From Minwuia thermotolerans (lineage in GTDB: Bacteria; Pseudomonadota; Alphaproteobacteria; Minwuiales; Minwuiaceae): a DNA stretch of 64,000 bases. How positions within the stretch are numbered: the first letter of the stretch is position 1; every line of letters begins with the position of its first letter. The notes beneath the pieces are model-generated. The model made no database searches and was not told the DNA's origin. It saw only the letters and a list, made by a program, of their open reading frames with translations. The position numbers were made by a program, and so were the translations under genes. The stretch spans positions 1 to 64,000 of the forward strand of contig NZ_PIGG01000004.1 in assembly GCF_002924445.1 (NCBI RefSeq), in the 5' to 3' direction. Below, piece after piece: positions 42,104-53,578 of the stretch.

Positions 42104-43115
42104 GGAGTATACTCTTTATCGTTGCTAACGGCTTGGAATTGGGTTCGCCGCGTAACGATGTGTAGCAACTTGCGCGTAACGGGAAGTCCTTGAATAGGTC
42201 TGCCCTCCAGATATGGTTGTCCAATGACCTAAAGCCAGTAGGATAGCGAAAATCCCAATCTTGTGTTGACAAGACAGACTCAAGGCATTCGGATTCCCAA
42301 TTATGATCAAAGACGGTTCACATGCATCTGACACTACTTTAGCCCGTTGTAAATGTTCAATACGGCACAAAATGGAATATTGATGTGGCAGACGCGGAAT
42401 TCTCAATATCTGGTCAAGTCTCGGTTTTGGAAAGATACTATAGCTCTAGACTTGGAATATCAAGTGCAACTGTCTCAATAACCGCAGCGACTAATCTTTA
42501 TATCCAAGAACTATGCGCCAAGGCTGGGTGGAAATTGGAAATAAAAAATTCAACACGGGCACTTATTTCGAATACAGAAGAGAGCGTGAATTTAATATGG
42601 GAGCTCTACAGGGAGAGGATAACATTTACAATTAACGGCCATGAACAACTTGGCTCCAGTTTAACTATTGAGATTGAAAATTCGATAAAAAATCCGGAAC
42701 AATTGCCGAAAATTAATACAAAAAGTAAGGAAAAATTAGAGCCATCAGGCACTAAACACAATTTTCTTTTTGTTCCTCAGGTTATTGCCTATGCAGTATG
42801 GGCAGTAGTTGGACTACTAATATGGATTCCAATACTAATTCGATCGAATATCATTGCCAGCAGTGCACTAATGTTATCTGCATTTTCCGAAATAGATAAG
42901 AAATGGATATATCGTATGCTGAATTACTCAAATACATTCTATATTGCTGGATTTAGGAGTATACTATATGCTGCTGATGGAAATGTCGCCAGTGAAATAA
43001 AATCAGAATCACTGGAAAAAGCTTTATTGAAATTTTGTCTCGAATGCGGATTTGCGATAGTGTTCTATTCCGTGACAATCAAGATTATATTTTGAAATTC
43101 ACTGCTCCGACAACG
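42104..43115. mobile_element. AT-rich ~1-kb insert at the 5' end of uup
   Basis: G+C drops to about one third in the coding part, against nearly 70% around it. The insert lies between two direct copies of the uup 5' end and holds one gene (42385-43095, plus strand). The 281 bp before that gene contain an interrupted palindrome GTTGCTA (42121-42127)/TAGCAAC (42163-42169), the uup-proximal palindrome GAGTATACTC and a TTGACA at 42266-42271 without a matching -10. No transposase, integrase, terminal inverted repeats or tRNA was found. Horizontal origin is inferred from composition and the duplication. Confidence 0.7.
42385..43095 (+). CDS. Unrecognised AT-rich membrane protein, 236 aa
   Basis: No family recognised. 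Residues 1-120 look like a soluble mixed alpha/beta domain (AEFSISGQVSVLERYYSSRL; LTIEIENSIKN). A strong hydrophobic segment, one or two helices, spans about 127-168 (FLFVPQVIAYAVWAVVGLL then SNIIASSALMLSAF), and the C-terminus (220-236, ECGFAIVFYSVTIKIIF) is again hydrophobic. Codon use is AT-biased and unlike every other gene in the window. The start is a GTG with a weak GGA upstream; the frame is open back to 42343, so the N-terminus could be truncated or differ. As sole cargo of a foreign insert it could be a defence, immunity or addiction protein, but nothing in the sequence proves a role. Confidence 0.65.
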   Translation: MADAEFSISGQVSVLERYYSSRLGISSATVSITAATNLYIQELCAKAGWKLEIKNSTRALISNTEESVNLIWELYRERITFTINGHEQLGSSLTIEIENSIKNPEQLPKINTKSKEKLEPSGTKHNFLFVPQVIAYAVWAVVGLLIWIPILIRSNIIASSALMLSAFSEIDKKWIYRMLNYSNTFYIAGFRSILYAADGNVASEIKSESLEKALLKFCLECGFAIVFYSVTIKIIF

Positions 43116-45253: not shown

Positions 45254-45754
45254 TCAGCGCCGGCCGAAATCGCTGACCACCATGATCATGTCGACCGTCT
45301 CGCCGTCCGAGGACAGCGGCATGTCCAGGTTCTCGGAGCGCAGATAGCTGCGGTCGCCGGCGGGGGCGACGCCGAGGGTGCGCACCGGTCCGCGCGTCCG
45401 CATCGCGGCGGCGGGGCCGGTCGCCAGGATATCGGCGATCTCCGGCGGGTAGAGTTCGTCCCAGTACCGCCCGGTCGAGTCGCGGCCCATCATCTCGGTG
45501 ACATGGGTGCCGATCAGCCGCCAGCGCAGACGAAGCCGCGGCGCATGCTCCACGTCGATCAGCAGCAGGTGCCGCAACAGGAACCCCGGCATCGCCGTGG
45601 GGTCCAGATCGCGGCGCGCCGGCATCTCGCGTTCCCCGCGGGCGTTGCGCCAGGCGGCCAGACCCGCCCGGAGCGCGTCGCTGCGGATATCGTCGACAGG
45701 CGCGAGCTCCATCCGGAACCAGTTCGGGAAATGGCGGTCTGGAGCGGGAGTCAT
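45254..45754 (-). CDS. PAS_5-family protein, third of three tandem paralogues
   Basis: A 166-residue single-domain PAS protein. Family landmarks are MPARRDLDPTAMPGFLLRHL (residues ~48-67), LRLRWRLIGTHVTEMMGRDS and DMPLSSDGETVDMIMVVSDF. No output domain is attached, so it may be a sensor module or partner. It starts 10 bp after the second paralogue. Ligand unknown. ATG 45754 is used because it aligns with the other two copies. Confidence 0.82.
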   Translation of the reverse strand: MTPAPDRHFPNWFRMELAPVDDIRSDALRAGLAAWRNARGEREMPARRDLDPTAMPGFLLRHLLLIDVEHAPRLRLRWRLIGTHVTEMMGRDSTGRYWDELYPPEIADILATGPAAAMRTRGPVRTLGVAPAGDRSYLRSENLDMPLSSDGETVDMIMVVSDFGRR

Positions 45755-45764
45755 CGGGTCCTCG

Positions 45765-46277
45765 TCACAACCTGATGGACCGGAGGTCGGTGGCGACCAG
45801 AATCTTGTCGACGCGCCGGCCGTCGTCGGAAAGCGGCATGTGGAGGTTTTCCGAGCGCAGATAGCTGCGTTCGTCAACCGGCGCCTGGCCCACGGTGCGT
45901 ACGGGGCGGCGGTTGGCCAGCACCCAGCGCGGGCCGGTGGTGATGGATGTCAGCGTCCCCGCGTCGTAGATCTCGTCGAACCAGCGCCCGGTCATGTCGC
46001 GGCCCAGCATGGTCGTCACATGGGTGCCGATCAGCCGCCAGCGGAAACGCGGCTCCGCCCCCGCCCCGGCGTCGACGTCGATCAGCAGGATGTGGGGCAG
46101 CAGGGCGCGCGGCGTCTCCGCCGGGTCGAAGTCGCGGCGCGCCGGCATCTGCCGCGGGCCGCGCAGCGCCTCCCAGAGCCGCAGGGCCTCGGCCAGGACC
46201 GGGCTCACGACCGCCAACTCCGGGTCCAGTTCCACCCGGAAGACCGCCGGCAGCGGCATCGGTTCGGGGCCGCTCAT
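45765..46277 (-). CDS. PAS_5-family protein, second of three tandem paralogues
   Basis: A 170-residue single-domain PAS protein with MPARRDFDPAETPRALLPHI, RFRWRLIGTHVTTMLGRDMT and HMPLSDDGRRVDKILVATDL. The start ATG overlaps the stop of the first paralogue (ATGA). It is clearly related to both neighbours, implying tandem duplication followed by divergence, with translational coupling preserved. Confidence 0.84.
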   Translation of the reverse strand: MSGPEPMPLPAVFRVELDPELAVVSPVLAEALRLWEALRGPRQMPARRDFDPAETPRALLPHILLIDVDAGAGAEPRFRWRLIGTHVTTMLGRDMTGRWFDEIYDAGTLTSITTGPRWVLANRRPVRTVGQAPVDERSYLRSENLHMPLSDDGRRVDKILVATDLRSIRL

Positions 46278-46798
46278 GACTGCTGCCCGTCGGGTGCGGG
46301 GCTGTAGAAATGGCAGGCGCCCAGGATCATGTCGACGCGCTCGCCGTCCGACGACAGCGGCATGTCGACCGCCTCCACCAGCAGGAAGGAGCGTTCCTCG
46401 CTGGGCGCGCGGGCGCGCGTGAAACAGGGCCGGCGCGTCTCGATCGCGGTCCGCATGCCGCCGACGACCAGTTCCATCTCGCGTTCGTGGTAGATCTCGT
46501 CGAACCAGCGCCCGCTCGAATCCCGGCCCATGGCCGTGGTGACATGGGTGCCGAGCAGCCGCCAGCGGAAACGCGGCGACGGCGTCTGGCCGTAGGCGAC
46601 GTCGACCAGCATCATGTGCGGCAGCAGCCGCCGCGGGGCCTCCACGGGATCGAAGTCCCGCCGGGACGGCATCGGCCGGTCGCCGCGCAGGCGGTCCCAA
46701 AGGGCGCGCGCCTCCAGCAGCAGCGGACTCTCGACTTCGGACTCCTCGACCGCCACGATCCGGAACGCACCGGTGCGGCTATCGATGAAACTGTTCAT
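46274..46798 (-). CDS. PAS_5-family protein, first of three tandem paralogues
   Basis: A 174-residue single-domain PAS protein heading the three-gene cluster. Shared motifs are MPSRRDFDPVEAPRRLLPHM, RFRWRLLGTHVTTAMGRDSS and DMPLSSDGERVDMILGACHF. The C-terminal half differs most among the three, in the region after GRWFDEIY, where a ligand pocket or partner surface may lie. A GGGGGTAG site precedes the start. No adjacent kinase or cyclase. Confidence 0.84.
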   Translation of the reverse strand: MNSFIDSRTGAFRIVAVEESEVESPLLLEARALWDRLRGDRPMPSRRDFDPVEAPRRLLPHMMLVDVAYGQTPSPRFRWRLLGTHVTTAMGRDSSGRWFDEIYHEREMELVVGGMRTAIETRRPCFTRARAPSEERSFLLVEAVDMPLSSDGERVDMILGACHFYSPAPDGQQS

Positions 46799-46898: not shown

Positions 46899-47507
46899 TC
46901 AGCTTTCCAGGTCCAGCCTGGCGCTGTTGGCGATGCGCTTCACCGCAGGCGCATGCAGGTCGAAGAAGTGCAGTCTGGGAGCCTGGTAAAGCACCATGTA
47001 GAGACGCTCGCCGATCATCGCGCCGATGACGAGGCCACGGACCTCCAGTTGCTCGACGGTAACCATTTCGACCTCGAAGCCGAAGCCACGCCGGTCGAGA
47101 AAGGTCTCCGGACGAAGACCGGTCGCGCGGATGCGCGGCGCCTGGGTAACCTTCGCCAGCGTGCTCTCGACCAGTTCCATCACGCCGCTCTCGGTCATGC
47201 CGGCGCGGTAGAGCGGCAGATCATCGTCCACGTTCTCCTTGCCGGTCTTCAGAATTGGCGTCTGCGGCTGGATCCCGTCGAAGAACAGGAGCTGATTGAC
47301 GCTCAGACCGTCGGCCGTCCAGCGGGCCGACGCCCCGTTCAGCGGCACGGCATAGGAGGACACCGCAGCCCAGTCGCCGACCACCTGGACCGTCATGTTG
47401 TCGCCGACGTCGGCGCGACGGTTCTTGTCGATGGACTGGTAGGTGCCGCATGCGGCCAGCAGGGCGAGAGCGGCGGCCGCGAGGGCCAGCCGGATGGATC
47501 CTGTCAT
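46899..47507 (-). CDS. Putative lipoprotein, 202 aa
   Basis: Lipobox leader LAAAALALLAACGTYQ (lipidated Cys at residue 20). The mature protein looks mixed alpha/beta with no recognised domain. It is the last gene of a three-gene operon; its start overlaps the stop of the M48 peptidase gene by 4 bp. Likely a periplasm-facing membrane-anchored partner of that peptidase, by position only. Confidence 0.7.
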   Translation of the reverse strand: MTGSIRLALAAAALALLAACGTYQSIDKNRRADVGDNMTVQVVGDWAAVSSYAVPLNGASARWTADGLSVNQLLFFDGIQPQTPILKTGKENVDDDLPLYRAGMTESGVMELVESTLAKVTQAPRIRATGLRPETFLDRRGFGFEVEMVTVEQLEVRGLVIGAMIGERLYMVLYQAPRLHFFDLHAPAVKRIANSARLDLES

Positions 47508-48703
47508 GTCTGGGCTCCGAGATAGGAACGTATCATCAGGTTGTCTTCCGCCGCCGGGGCCAGTTCGAGATAGCGCCGGAAGGCGTCGGCGGCGCTGCCG
47601 TGGCGGCCGGCACGCCGGTGCAGGATGCCAAGTCCCCGCCAGGCGCGGGCATGCCCCGGATCGAAGCCGAGGGCGCGGCCATAGGCGTTCGTGGCCAGGA
47701 ACTCATCCCGCGGGCCGTTGCGCCGGCGGTAGACTTCGGCCTCGTAGTAGTGGACGTCCGGATCGTTGGGGAAGACACGCTTCATCCGGTCGACAATGAC
47801 CAGCGTGCGGTCGAACTGGTGAAGGCGCAGTTCGCTCTGCATCAGCCGGTCGCGGATAACGGCGAGCGCCATGTGATAGTCGGCCTCGCCATAGCGCTGG
47901 CCGTCGACCAGGTGCTGCCGGGCCTTGACCGCGAGTGCGCGGATCCGGCTGTCCGGCGTCGGATGGGAAGCGGTCCAGACCGCCTTCTTCTCGCGCCACT
48001 CCTCCCGCTCGTCTTCATCCAGGCCGGCGTCCAGCTCTTCCACCAGCCCCTGCCAGACACTGGCGGCCGCGAAGGGCGCGTAACCGGCCCGGGTCATCAG
48101 CTCCAGGCCAAGTTCGTCCGCCTCCGCCTCCTGTTCACGGCTGAAGCTGGAAATGTTGGCCTGGGCAATGAGATAGGGCAGGCGCGCAGCCTCGCCGCCG
48201 CCGGCGCCGGCGATCAGCACGGCGGCAAAGGCCGCGAACGCCGCCTGGTTGGTCCTGTTCTCCATCTGCTGCAGCGAATGGCGGCGGATATAGTGACCCA
48301 GTTCGTGGCCGATCACCGCCGCCAGCTCGGCCTCGCTCTGGCAGCGGAGCAGCAACCCGGACCAGATCTGCATCATGCCGTTCGGCGCCATCGAGGCGTT
48401 GAAGTAAGGCGTTTCCACCAGGTAGACGCGGATATCCGGGCAGAGGTCGCCTGCCAGACGGCAGGCGATACGCTGGACGTAGTCGTTCAGCCGGGCATCG
48501 CGGATTCGAAGCGGCGAATGCCGGGTGCTCGCCTCGATGTCCTCCATTTCCTTCCAGATCCCGCCTTCCAGCGAGTTCGCCTGCGGCTGATGGCCGGCGG
48601 TGACGTCCCGCCGCGCCTGGCTTGTCACGCATCCGCCCAGCGCGATGGCCCCGCAGCCGCACAGTCCGTGCAGAACCTGCCGGCGGGTCAGCGCCGCGGA
48701 CAT
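47504..48703 (-). CDS. M48-family zinc metalloprotease with C-terminal TPR-like region
   Basis: A 399-residue lipoprotein: a leader with RRQVLHGLCGCGAIALGGC, an arginine pair of Tat type and a lipobox Cys near residue 25. The zinc motif HELGH is at residues 133-137, with the third ligand in EAEADELGLELM near 195, as in BepA/LoiP-type M48 peptidases of the periplasm. The C-terminal ~110 residues (about 285-390, with YGRALGFDPGHARAWRGLG) form TPR-like helical pairs, as in BepA. It likely helps outer-membrane protein quality control. Both neighbours in the operon are lipoproteins, linked by TGATG and 4-bp overlaps. Confidence 0.88.
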   Translation of the reverse strand: MSAALTRRQVLHGLCGCGAIALGGCVTSQARRDVTAGHQPQANSLEGGIWKEMEDIEASTRHSPLRIRDARLNDYVQRIACRLAGDLCPDIRVYLVETPYFNASMAPNGMMQIWSGLLLRCQSEAELAAVIGHELGHYIRRHSLQQMENRTNQAAFAAFAAVLIAGAGGGEAARLPYLIAQANISSFSREQEAEADELGLELMTRAGYAPFAAASVWQGLVEELDAGLDEDEREEWREKKAVWTASHPTPDSRIRALAVKARQHLVDGQRYGEADYHMALAVIRDRLMQSELRLHQFDRTLVIVDRMKRVFPNDPDVHYYEAEVYRRRNGPRDEFLATNAYGRALGFDPGHARAWRGLGILHRRAGRHGSAADAFRRYLELAPAAEDNLMIRSYLGAQT

Positions 48704-50712: not shown

Positions 50713-51000
50713 ATGTCGAGCGAGAACCTGCACGCGCCGCGCGAGCGGCTGTCGAAAGAGACCCTGCACATGCACCACGCCATCGTCTCCCTGATGGAGG
50801 AGATGGAGGCGGTCGACTGGTACCGCCAGCGCGCCGACGACTGCGACGACGAGCAGCTGAAGGAAATCCTGCTCCACAACATGCGCGAGGAGATGGAGCA
50901 CGCCGCCATGGTCCTCGAGTGGATCCGCCGCAACTCCAAGGACTTCGACGCCAATCTGCGCGAGTTCCTGTTCAAGGACGGCGAGATTTCGGACCACTGA
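50713..51000 (+). CDS. Encapsulated-ferritin-like (EncFtn) protein without targeting peptide
   Basis: A 95-residue two-helix ferritin of the EncFtn type. Iron-site and entry residues match Rhodospirillum rubrum EncFtn with an offset of two: E29, E30, E32, W36, Y37 (in MEEMEAVDWY) and E60, H63 (in MREEMEHAAM). In characterised systems the protein oxidises iron inside an encapsulin nanocompartment and ends in a targeting peptide (SLGIGSL-like). Here the chain ends at LFKDGEISDH with no such tail, and the next gene is an MFS permease, not encapsulin. Strong GGGAGG site. Likely oxidises or buffers Fe(II) in the cytoplasm; forms annular oligomers in the family. Confidence 0.88.
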   Translation: MSSENLHAPRERLSKETLHMHHAIVSLMEEMEAVDWYRQRADDCDDEQLKEILLHNMREEMEHAAMVLEWIRRNSKDFDANLREFLFKDGEISDH

Positions 51001-51007
51001 TCCCGCC

Positions 51008-52321
51008 ATGGCCGAGACCGCCGTCCAGCGCGCCTACGCTGTCCTGACGTCGGAAGACGAGGGCCGGGTCTGCCGCGACATCCCCGAAAGCGCCTGCAAC
51101 GCGCAGCCCGAGAACTTCATGCGCCACGTCATCAGTCTGGCGGCGACCAAGCTGGGCGACGGGCTGATCGACCCCAAGCTGGTGCTGGCCTGGCTGATGG
51201 GCGCGCTGGGCGCGCCGGTCTATCTGATCGGCTTCCTGGTGCCGATCCGGGAGGCGGGCGCCCTGCTGCCGCAGCTTTTCATCGCCGCGCGCATCCGCTC
51301 CCTGCCGCAGCGCAAGTGGGTCTGGGCCGGCGGCTCGCTGGTCCAGGGCGCAGCAGTGACCGGGATCGGCCTGGCGGCGCTGACGCTGGAGGGCGCAGCC
51401 GCCGGCTGGGCCATCGTCGGCCTGCTCGCGGTCTTCGCCCTGGCCCGCAGCGCCTGCTCGGTGAGCTACAAGGACGTGCTGGGCAAGACGGTTTCCAAGT
51501 CGACGCGCGGCACCGCGACCGGCACGGCCGGCAGCCTCGCCTCAGCGGGCGTGCTGGCCTTCGGGCTGCTGCTGGGTGCCGGAATACTGCCCAAGAACGT
51601 CGAGGTCATCGCCGTGGTGCTGTTCGTCGCCGGCGGGCTCTGGATCGCCGCCGCCGGCGTCTTCACGACCCTGAAGGAAGAGCCCGGGGCGACCGAGGGC
51701 GGCGGCAATCCCTTCCGGGTGGCGATCGCGCAGTTCGGCCTGCTGCGCACGGACGGGCAGCTGGTGCGGTTCATCGTCGTCCGCGCGCTGCTGATCGCCA
51801 CGGCGCTGGCGCCGCCCTATCTGCTGGCGCTGGCCGGCGCGGCGGAGGAGTCCGGCGGCCTGGGCGGCCTCGGCCTGTTCCTGATCGCCTCCTCGGCGGC
51901 AGCGATCCTGGGCGGCTATGTCTGGGGCCGCGCCTCGGACCGCTCCAGCCGCAAGGTGCTGATCGCCGCCGGACTGCTGGCGGCGCTGGCCTTCGTGCTC
52001 GCGGTGCTCCTCGACCGCACCGGCGGGGAGATCGACAAGGCCGGCTGGGTGCTGCCGGCGCTGCTGTTCTTGCTGCAGCTCGCCTATCAGGGCGTGCGGC
52101 TGGCGCGGGCGACGCATCTGACCGACATGGCCGGCCGCGACAGCCGCGCGGCCTACACGGCCCTCTCCAACACCATCATCGGCGTGTTATTGCTGGCGGG
52201 CGCGGGCGTCGGCTTCCTCGCCTCGGCCTTCGGCGAGGCGGCGGTGCTGGCCCTGTTCGCGGCAATGTGCGTCGCGGCCTCGGTGGTCGCGCTTGGCCTT
52301 GAGGAGGTGCAGAAGGAATGA
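51008..52321 (+). CDS. MFS-type permease in the EncFtn cluster
   Basis: A 437-residue polytopic protein with about 11-12 membrane helices and MFS-like cytoplasmic loops (GRASDRSSRKVLIA near residue 315, a motif-A analogue). A ~60-residue hydrophilic N-terminus with two cysteines (RVCRDIPESACNAQ) precedes the first helix; such extensions could bind metal, though this is speculation. It starts 7 bp after the EncFtn stop and ends in a 4-bp overlap (ATGA) with the DUF3012 gene. Substrate unknown; a role in moving iron, haem or a chelate is inferred from neighbours. Confidence 0.8.
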   Translation: MAETAVQRAYAVLTSEDEGRVCRDIPESACNAQPENFMRHVISLAATKLGDGLIDPKLVLAWLMGALGAPVYLIGFLVPIREAGALLPQLFIAARIRSLPQRKWVWAGGSLVQGAAVTGIGLAALTLEGAAAGWAIVGLLAVFALARSACSVSYKDVLGKTVSKSTRGTATGTAGSLASAGVLAFGLLLGAGILPKNVEVIAVVLFVAGGLWIAAAGVFTTLKEEPGATEGGGNPFRVAIAQFGLLRTDGQLVRFIVVRALLIATALAPPYLLALAGAAEESGGLGGLGLFLIASSAAAILGGYVWGRASDRSSRKVLIAAGLLAALAFVLAVLLDRTGGEIDKAGWVLPALLFLLQLAYQGVRLARATHLTDMAGRDSRAAYTALSNTIIGVLLLAGAGVGFLASAFGEAAVLALFAAMCVAASVVALGLEEVQKE

Positions 52322-52506
52322 GGGCGACTGGTCTGGCGAAATGGGGCGCCGCGGCGGCGCTTCTGGCGCTCGCGGCGGCCTGTGAGCCCGAAGTGGGCAG
52401 CGACGAATGGTGCGCCGGGATGGAGGAAAAGCCGAAGGGCGAATGGACGCTCAACGAGACCGCCGAGTTCACGAAGAACTGCATCATCAAGATGCCGAAG
52501 GAATGA
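52318..52506 (+). CDS. DUF3012-type small lipoprotein
   Basis: 62 residues: leader ending LLALAAACEPEVGSDEW with a lipobox Cys at residue 22, then the compact domain WCAGMEEKPKGEWTLNETAEF with two further cysteines and a closing NCIIKM. This matches my memory of DUF3012 proteins (W-C-x-x-M-x-x-K-P-K-G-x-W). Function of the family is not known. Overlaps the permease stop, so it is part of the same operon. Confidence 0.8.
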   Translation: MRATGLAKWGAAAALLALAAACEPEVGSDEWCAGMEEKPKGEWTLNETAEFTKNCIIKMPKE

Positions 52507-52585
52507 CGGCGGCGTCCGGCCAGAGCCATTGAACGAGGCTCGGGCGCGCCTTGGCGAATCCGCACGGGAACCCAATTGGAGTCCG

Positions 52586-53578
52586 ATGTCTTTTCTGTCA
52601 CGCATCGCCGCCCTTCTGACGGGCCTTCTGCTGCTCGCCGCCTGCGCCGAACAGGGCGCCGGCGACGGCCGCGGCGCCGGATCCGAAGCTGCGCTGCCGC
52701 CGCTGCTCAACGTGCAGGAGAGCGGCCGCCGCGCACACCCGCTGATCGGGCGCATCTGGATTCCCGGCGAAGGCCGGGAGGCCAGCGAGGCGGAGCTGGC
52801 GCGCCATATCGCCGGCACGCGCTTCGTCCTGATCGGTGAGAAGCACGACAATCCCGACCACCACCGCCTGCAGGCCGGCATACTGGCCGAGCTCGTGCGC
52901 GCCGACCGGCGGCCCGCCGTGGTCTGGGAGATGATCGACTTCGCCCGCGAAGATGCGCTGCAGGCCTATCTGGCCCGCCCCGGCGCCGACGCCGCCGGCC
53001 TTGGCGACGCCGTGGGCTGGGCCGAATCCGGCTGGCCCGAATGGGAAACCTACCGCCCCATCGCGGAGGTGGCGATGGCCGCCGGCCTGCCGCAGCACGC
53101 CGCCAACTTCGACCGCGCCACCGTGGGCCGGCTGATGCGCGACGGGCTGTCGGCCCTGACCGATCCCGTGACCGCACGGCTGCTGCGCGTCGCGCCCTGG
53201 AGCCAGCGCGAGGAAACAGCGCTCAACCTCGATCTGGTGGAGGGCCATTGCGGCGTCATGCCCGAACGCATGCTGGCGCCCATGAACCGCATCCAGCGCA
53301 GCCGCGACGCCGCCATGGCCGCCGCGCTGCTGCAGGCCGACGCCGGCGATGGCGCGGTGCTGATCGCCGGCAACGGCCATGTCCGCGCCGACCGGGGCGT
53401 GCCGATCTATCTCGGCACCAACCCGGACGCGGTGAGCATCGGCCTGATCGAGGCCGTTCCCGGCGAAACCGCGGCCGCCGCCTATGTCGACAATGCCCGC
53501 CAGTTCGACTTCGTGATCTTCACCGCCCTGACCCCCAGCCCCGACCGCTGCGCGGGCTTCAGCTTCGGCAGGGAATAG
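52586..53578 (+). CDS. ChaN-family lipoprotein (haem/iron-associated)
   Basis: A 330-residue protein with a lipobox (LTGLLLLAACAEQ, Cys near residue 21) and the ChaN/Tiki fold signature LIGEKHDNPDHHRLQ (residues ~88-102), WEMIDFAR and a late GNGHVRADRGVPIYL. ChaN of Campylobacter is an iron-regulated, haem-binding outer-membrane lipoprotein. It starts 79 bp after the DUF3012 gene, likely still in the EncFtn transcription unit. ATG 52586 with TTGGAG upstream begins the signal peptide exactly. Confidence 0.85.
   Translation: MSFLSRIAALLTGLLLLAACAEQGAGDGRGAGSEAALPPLLNVQESGRRAHPLIGRIWIPGEGREASEAELARHIAGTRFVLIGEKHDNPDHHRLQAGILAELVRADRRPAVVWEMIDFAREDALQAYLARPGADAAGLGDAVGWAESGWPEWETYRPIAEVAMAAGLPQHAANFDRATVGRLMRDGLSALTDPVTARLLRVAPWSQREETALNLDLVEGHCGVMPERMLAPMNRIQRSRDAAMAAALLQADAGDGAVLIAGNGHVRADRGVPIYLGTNPDAVSIGLIEAVPGETAAAAYVDNARQFDFVIFTALTPSPDRCAGFSFGRE

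What the first reader, a model, noticed from the sequence alone, without database searches (positions are those of the whole stretch)
50713..53578. Shell-less encapsulated ferritin in an operon with an MFS permease, DUF3012 and ChaN lipoproteins
The EncFtn protein keeps every known iron-site residue (E29, E30, E32, W36, Y37, E60, H63) but ends at residue 95 with no targeting peptide, and no encapsulin shell gene is adjacent. Instead it is followed by a permease (7-bp gap), a DUF3012 lipoprotein (ATGA overlap) and a ChaN-family haem/iron lipoprotein. This suggests an undescribed iron-handling module in which the ferritin ring works without its nanocompartment, possibly linked to metal transport by the permease and outer-membrane uptake by ChaN.
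Basis: partly seen in the sequence, partly recalled or inferred. Interest (0 to 1): 0.8.

Follow-up and report, generated by a model that had tools for sequence, protein, structure and literature searches.

The report
Shell-free EncFtn ferroxidase–transporter operon
A bacterium of the genus Minwuia carries, besides an ordinary ferritin-in-a-shell cassette elsewhere in its genome, a second shortened copy of that ferritin with no shell tag, placed in an operon with an uncharacterised membrane transporter; this short ferritin is widespread in bacteria that have no shell gene at all, so it probably oxidises iron on its own.

Summary
In detail: a 95-aa EncFtn-family protein (50713-51000) with all ferroxidase residues and no targeting peptide is followed by an MFS permease, a DUF3012 lipoprotein and a ChaN-family lipoprotein. 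The interpretation needs four corrections. (1) The genome is not shell-less: another contig has a canonical encapsulin with its own tagged EncFtn. (2) The short form is already known (s-FLP; N. europaea NE0167, PDB 3k6c, also 95 aa). (3) DUF3012 is not core: other Minwuia have a TPR gene in that slot. (4) EncFtn-MFS-x-ChaN is conserved in Minwuia in two genomic settings; EncFtn-MFS alone recurs in one unrelated family. New evidence bears on an open question, whether s-FLPs are encapsulated. Of 32 alphaproteobacterial genomes with the short form, 31 have no encapsulin of either Pfam type; all 18 EncFtns beside an encapsulin have long tagged tails, none of 99 short ones has a tag. The MFS subfamily co-occurs with s-FLPs (12 of 32 genomes against 0 of 10 with only tagged EncFtn). 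Best reading: a free cytoplasmic Fe(II) oxidase for iron and oxidative stress, with an associated transporter of unknown substrate. A new variant of a known kind.

The parts
50713..51000 (+). short EncFtn-family ferritin-like protein (s-FLP), 95 aa, complete ferroxidase site, no encapsulin targeting peptide
   Evidence: PF22277 4.5e-38; closest solved relatives H. ochraceum 5n5f, R. rubrum 5da5 and N. europaea 3k6c; site residues conserved
51008..52321 (+). MFS permease of an unnamed subfamily with N-terminal motif CRDIPxxAC..QP.NF; 7 bp after the s-FLP
   Evidence: PF07690 2.1e-12; no NCBIfam equivalog above cut-off; AF2 model pLDDT 87 with generic MFS fold, best PDB matches MdfA and AmpG; 18-member alignment
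52318..52506 (+). DUF3012 small lipoprotein, ATGA overlap with MFS; a replaceable slot
   Evidence: PF11216 5.8e-16; found only in the window genome and sister G291; a TPR gene occupies the slot in four other Minwuia genomes
52586..53578 (+). ChaN/Tiki-superfamily (Cofac_haem_bdg) lipoprotein
   Evidence: PF04187 2.6e-44; syntenic ChaN (44-45% identity) third gene after the s-FLP in the other Minwuia contigs that reach that far

Best explanation
The gene encodes an s-FLP: a two-helix EncFtn subunit expected to form a decameric ring with a di-iron ferroxidase centre at its dimer interface, working free in the cytoplasm as an Fe(II) oxidase for iron and oxidative-stress defence rather than as encapsulin cargo. 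It has no cavity to store mineral; oxidised iron is presumably passed to chelators, to bacterioferritin (one Ferritin-family gene is present) or out of the cell. In Minwuia it is probably co-transcribed with an MFS permease of a subfamily that tends to accompany s-FLPs, and with a ChaN-type envelope protein. The MFS most likely exports a small molecule tied to iron or redox stress (for example a ferric chelate, or citrate as IceT does). Shown: sequence, site residues, lack of a tag, lack of encapsulin in nearly all s-FLP genomes, conserved synteny, co-occurrence. Inferred: ring formation, activity, co-transcription, physiological role. Substrate and direction of the MFS and the role of ChaN are conjecture.
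For: Site residues conserved across short and tagged EncFtns. 42 of 289 genomes have a strong EncFtn, 11 have an encapsulin, and 31 of 32 s-FLP genomes have none; family-2 encapsulins are absent from all of them. 18/18 distinct encapsulin-adjacent EncFtns carry a tagged tail, 0/99 others do. s-FLP and MFS are adjacent in all seven Minwuia genomes with an s-FLP, in two different genomic contexts. A second adjacency in family f29, whose MFS lies in a separate clade. Co-occurrence in 12/32 s-FLP genomes against 0/10 tagged-only; family-level p=2.6e-4. Stress-gene neighbours of other s-FLPs: MsrP in 7 genomes, thioredoxin reductase in 7, Dps in 3. EncFtn without its shell is a ferroxidase that stores no mineral, and the 3k6c s-FLP forms decamers in the crystal (PMC5012862, PMC11202242).
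Against: No promoter, iron box or other regulatory evidence was found (one weak palindrome only). Most s-FLPs do not sit next to the MFS. A generic MFS fold gives no substrate. EncFtn without its shell is slower and makes precipitates in vitro (PMC5012862), which questions its use without a store. This genome does own an encapsulin.
Confidence: 0.6

Rival explanations
1. The s-FLP co-assembles with the tagged EncFtn of the same genome into mixed rings and is carried into the encapsulin as untagged co-cargo, tuning loading or activity.
For: Both are present in the window genome and its sister G291; 62% identity and shared site residues; the 2024 review leaves encapsulation of s-FLPs open.
Against: Five other Minwuia and 31 of 32 s-FLP genomes have no encapsulin; the two genes are on different contigs in different operons; the s-FLP lies far from the tagged protein in the tree.
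Confidence: 0.12
2. The s-FLP is a redox or iron sensor, chaperone or iron donor rather than a bulk ferroxidase, delivering iron to partner proteins or regulating the transporter.
For: No storage cavity; operon with a transporter; neighbours in other genomes are redox-repair genes (MsrP, TrxB).
Against: Complete ferroxidase site conserved in 27 homologues; tagged relatives are active ferroxidases (PMC5012862).
Confidence: 0.15
3. The neighbourhood is only a genus-level accident: s-FLP, MFS, DUF3012/TPR and ChaN have no shared function.
For: Most s-FLP neighbours are lineage-specific; the middle gene is replaced within the genus; ChaN is linked only in Minwuia.
Against: The block sits in two different contexts (SpeB/PhoD against SDR/permease) with conserved order and tight or overlapping starts; genome co-occurrence of MFS and s-FLP; a second adjacency with MsrP downstream.
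Confidence: 0.25

Closest known systems
s-FLP / 'Non-EncFtn' (Nitrosomonas europaea NE0167, PDB 3k6c)
   Same: 95 aa, EncFtn family by sequence, no C-terminal targeting peptide; phmmer E=5e-26 over residues 2-92 (PMC11202242, PMC5012862)
   Different: No operon partners or function are described for NE0167 in the papers read and its encapsulation is left open; here MFS and ChaN follow and encapsulin-free genomes are documented
Encapsulated ferritin (R. rubrum EncFtn 5da5, H. ochraceum 5n5f)
   Same: Same family and site residues
   Different: Tagged C-terminus and encapsulin partner; the window gene has no tag and no adjacent shell gene (the genome has a separate tagged copy at C53)
IceT, Salmonella MFS iron-citrate exporter
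   Same: MFS; the only MFS reported to export iron in the review read (PMC7762939)
   Different: No homology test was made here; offered only as a functional analogy
MbfA membrane-bound ferritin exporter of alphaproteobacteria
   Same: Links a non-cage ferritin-like domain to membrane iron export (PMC7762939)
   Different: One fused protein with a different transport domain; here a separate soluble protein and an MFS

Membership tests
EncFtn-like / s-FLP | Match to the EncFtn profile over its whole length | tested here: met
   PF22277 residues 6-89 to profile 2-85 of 85, 129 bits against cut-off 27
EncFtn-like / s-FLP | Ferroxidase ligands E30, E60, H63 plus Y37, W36 and entry-site E29/E32 | tested here: met
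   numbering offset of 2 from R. rubrum E32/E62/H65
EncFtn-like / s-FLP | Decameric ring with ferroxidase activity | not testable with these tools
   known for relatives only (PMC5012862, PMC11202242)
Encapsulin cargo (TIGR04535, FLP-TP) | C-terminal targeting peptide | tested here: not met
   ends ...KDGEISDH at residue 95; tagged relatives end in GSLK-like motifs
Encapsulin cargo (TIGR04535, FLP-TP) | Encapsulin gene adjacent | tested here: not met
   none at this locus; encapsulin on C53 has its own tagged EncFtn
Encapsulin cargo (TIGR04535, FLP-TP) | Score above the NCBIfam curated cut-off | tested here: not met
   107.8 against 125 bits
Iron-exporting MFS (IceT-like) | Homology to IceT or a known iron MFS | not tested
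   IceT sequence not fetched; no solved MFS matched by sequence, generic MFS fold only
ChaN haem-binding lipoprotein | Cofac_haem_bdg domain and lipobox | tested here: met
   PF04187 2.6e-44, LLAAC; another Minwuia copy (L115) lacks an evident lipobox
ChaN haem-binding lipoprotein | Haem binding | not testable with these tools
   no experiment

The most novel reading that the evidence does not exclude
Short EncFtn rings and this unnamed MFS subfamily (N-terminal CRDIP..AC motif) form a shell-free iron detoxification module: the ring oxidises Fe(II) and the permease exports the ferric product or its chelator, an oxidise-and-export alternative to oxidise-and-store.
Probability: 0.2. Interest if true: 0.65.

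Novelty: new variant of a known kind. Interest (0 to 1): 0.45.

Why it matters
The 2024 review of encapsulated ferritins leaves open whether short, untagged EncFtns are encapsulated. The genome survey here argues that almost all of them, in the class sampled, live in cells with no encapsulin, so they should be studied as free enzymes. It also names a candidate partner (an uncharacterised MFS subfamily) and clean test organisms (Minwuia without encapsulin).

Tried and rejected
Hidden targeting peptide or frameshift: rejected, since length and end are conserved across Minwuia. DUF3012 as core: rejected by a motif scan of all loci held, although a divergent copy could be missed. ChaN as a general s-FLP partner: not found outside Minwuia at E<=1e-3. 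Regulation: no sigma-70 match and no Irr/ICE-type box upstream of the s-FLP; the upstream alignment of seven Minwuia loci shows no convincing shared operator. Structure of the MFS: generic fold, no substrate clue. Literature: no paper found joining encapsulin, ferritin-like, MFS transporter and ChaN; NE0167 is named in only one held paper, the review; no functional paper on DUF3012 among the two that name it (judged from titles and abstracts).

Full report
Observation. The four genes are present at the stated coordinates: s-FLP 50713-51000 (95 aa), MFS 51008-52321, DUF3012 52318-52506 with an ATGA overlap, ChaN 52586-53578. Pfam assigns EncFtn-like, MFS_1, DUF3012 and Cofac_haem_bdg.

The genome is not shell-less. 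A family-1 encapsulin lies at G000:C53:35146-35904 (E=1e-83). Directly upstream of it is a second EncFtn (C53:36030-36281) that ends ...GDLGIRSLKA, a targeting-peptide-like tail. So the organism has a canonical cassette plus the separate short copy. It also has one Ferritin-family gene at C64:180029.

The organism is a Minwuia species or very close to that genus, judged from named relatives whose contigs match its genus mates by length and position.

The short form is a known class. It matches NE0167 of Nitrosomonas europaea (PDB 3k6c, 95 aa) over its length. He et al. 2016 included related proteins lacking the encapsulin sequence as 'Non-EncFtn' (PMC5012862). [quoted passage not shown]

New survey evidence on that question. 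In 289 genomes of the same class, 42 have a strong EncFtn match. Eleven have a PF04454 encapsulin, and each of those eleven has a tagged EncFtn directly beside one. The other 31 have no PF04454 hit. PF19307 (family 2) hits do not fall in any of these EncFtn genomes. With the window genome this makes 32 s-FLP genomes, of which 31 lack an encapsulin. Among the 117 distinct EncFtn proteins collected from all loci, the 18 next to an encapsulin are 122-148 aa long with a tag, and none of the 99 others carries one. A tree on 92 columns is poorly resolved, but its well-supported branches force at least 3 changes between the two states, and it puts the window s-FLP far from the tagged copy of its own genome. 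Caveats: some draft genomes are incomplete, and some named MAGs with odd taxonomy may be mis-binned.

Neighbourhood in the genus. s-FLP followed by the MFS holds in all seven Minwuia genomes with an s-FLP: G000, G291, G082, G197, G292, G293 and G294 (several were met a second time as named contigs L111, L114, L115, L119, L122). Only G000 and G291 have an encapsulin; the other five have none. ChaN is third after the s-FLP in the six genomes whose contigs reach that far. The slot between MFS and ChaN holds DUF3012 in G000 and G291, and a 183-aa TPR protein with overlapping start and stop codons in G082, G197, G292 and G294. The flanks differ: arginase-family and PhoD genes in the window, SDR and a permease in the others. 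The block is therefore kept while its surroundings change.

Neighbourhood outside the genus. Rhodospirillaceae ECT2AJA-110-B (L137, G028) has s-FLP-MFS-MsrP with Dps upstream, and a Kiloniellaceae MAG (L123) has the MFS about 1.4 kb away on the other strand. The MFS of G028 belongs to a separate clade of the subfamily, so its adjacency is either independent or very old. The MFS subfamily is in 20 of 289 genomes: 12 of the 32 s-FLP genomes, 0 of the 10 tagged-only genomes and 8 of the rest. Fisher p=3e-8 by genome, not corrected for kinship; by family, 8 of 13 against 20 of 145, p=2.6e-4 (the family total of 158 is taken from the labels). Across other s-FLP loci no neighbour is universal, but stress genes recur: MsrP in 7 genomes, thioredoxin reductase in 7, Dps in 3. 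The MFS also sits beside an MsrP-like gene in G236, where no s-FLP is adjacent.

Mechanism. From relatives, the ring oxidises Fe(II) with O2 and does not store mineral without a shell (PMC5012862). Free in the cytoplasm it would lower the Fe(II) pool that drives Fenton chemistry and pass Fe(III) on. The stress-gene neighbours fit this. The permease is the best-supported partner, but its substrate is unknown: sequence search found no solved relative and the predicted model shows only a general MFS fold, nearest MdfA and AmpG. IceT is the only reported iron-exporting MFS in the review read (PMC7762939), and I offer it as analogy, not kinship. ChaN's role is not testable here.

Verdict. Real, partly known, corrected in four respects. 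The worthwhile part is the evidence that short EncFtns act outside encapsulins, together with a candidate transporter partner.

Noticed in passing
window 45254-46795 (-): Three consecutive PAS_5-domain genes of about 150-175 aa, apparently tandem paralogues.
   Followed up: partly
window 42426-42442 and 42952-42968 (+): Two matches with 3 mismatches to an Irr/ICE-like palindrome, more than shuffles give (mean 0.02), but not near the s-FLP; both lie in or near the ORF 42385-43095 and may only reflect a locally AT-rich stretch.
   Followed up: no
MFS homologues, e.g. L105 (G236) and L137 (G028): The MFS subfamily lies next to a methionine-sulfoxide reductase MsrP-type gene with or without an s-FLP beside it.
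   Followed up: partly
window MFS residues 22-38 and homologues: The MFS subfamily has a conserved N-terminal segment before the first helix with two cysteines (CRDIP..AC..QP.NF), lost in some members; function unknown.
   Followed up: no
L189 (Rhizobium sp. Q54 MAG): A 111-aa EncFtn without a tag falls inside a clade of tagged EncFtns; may be a recent loss of the tag or a broken gene.
   Followed up: no
window 47504-48703 (-): M48 peptidase with C-terminal TPRs (BepA-like arrangement).
   Followed up: no
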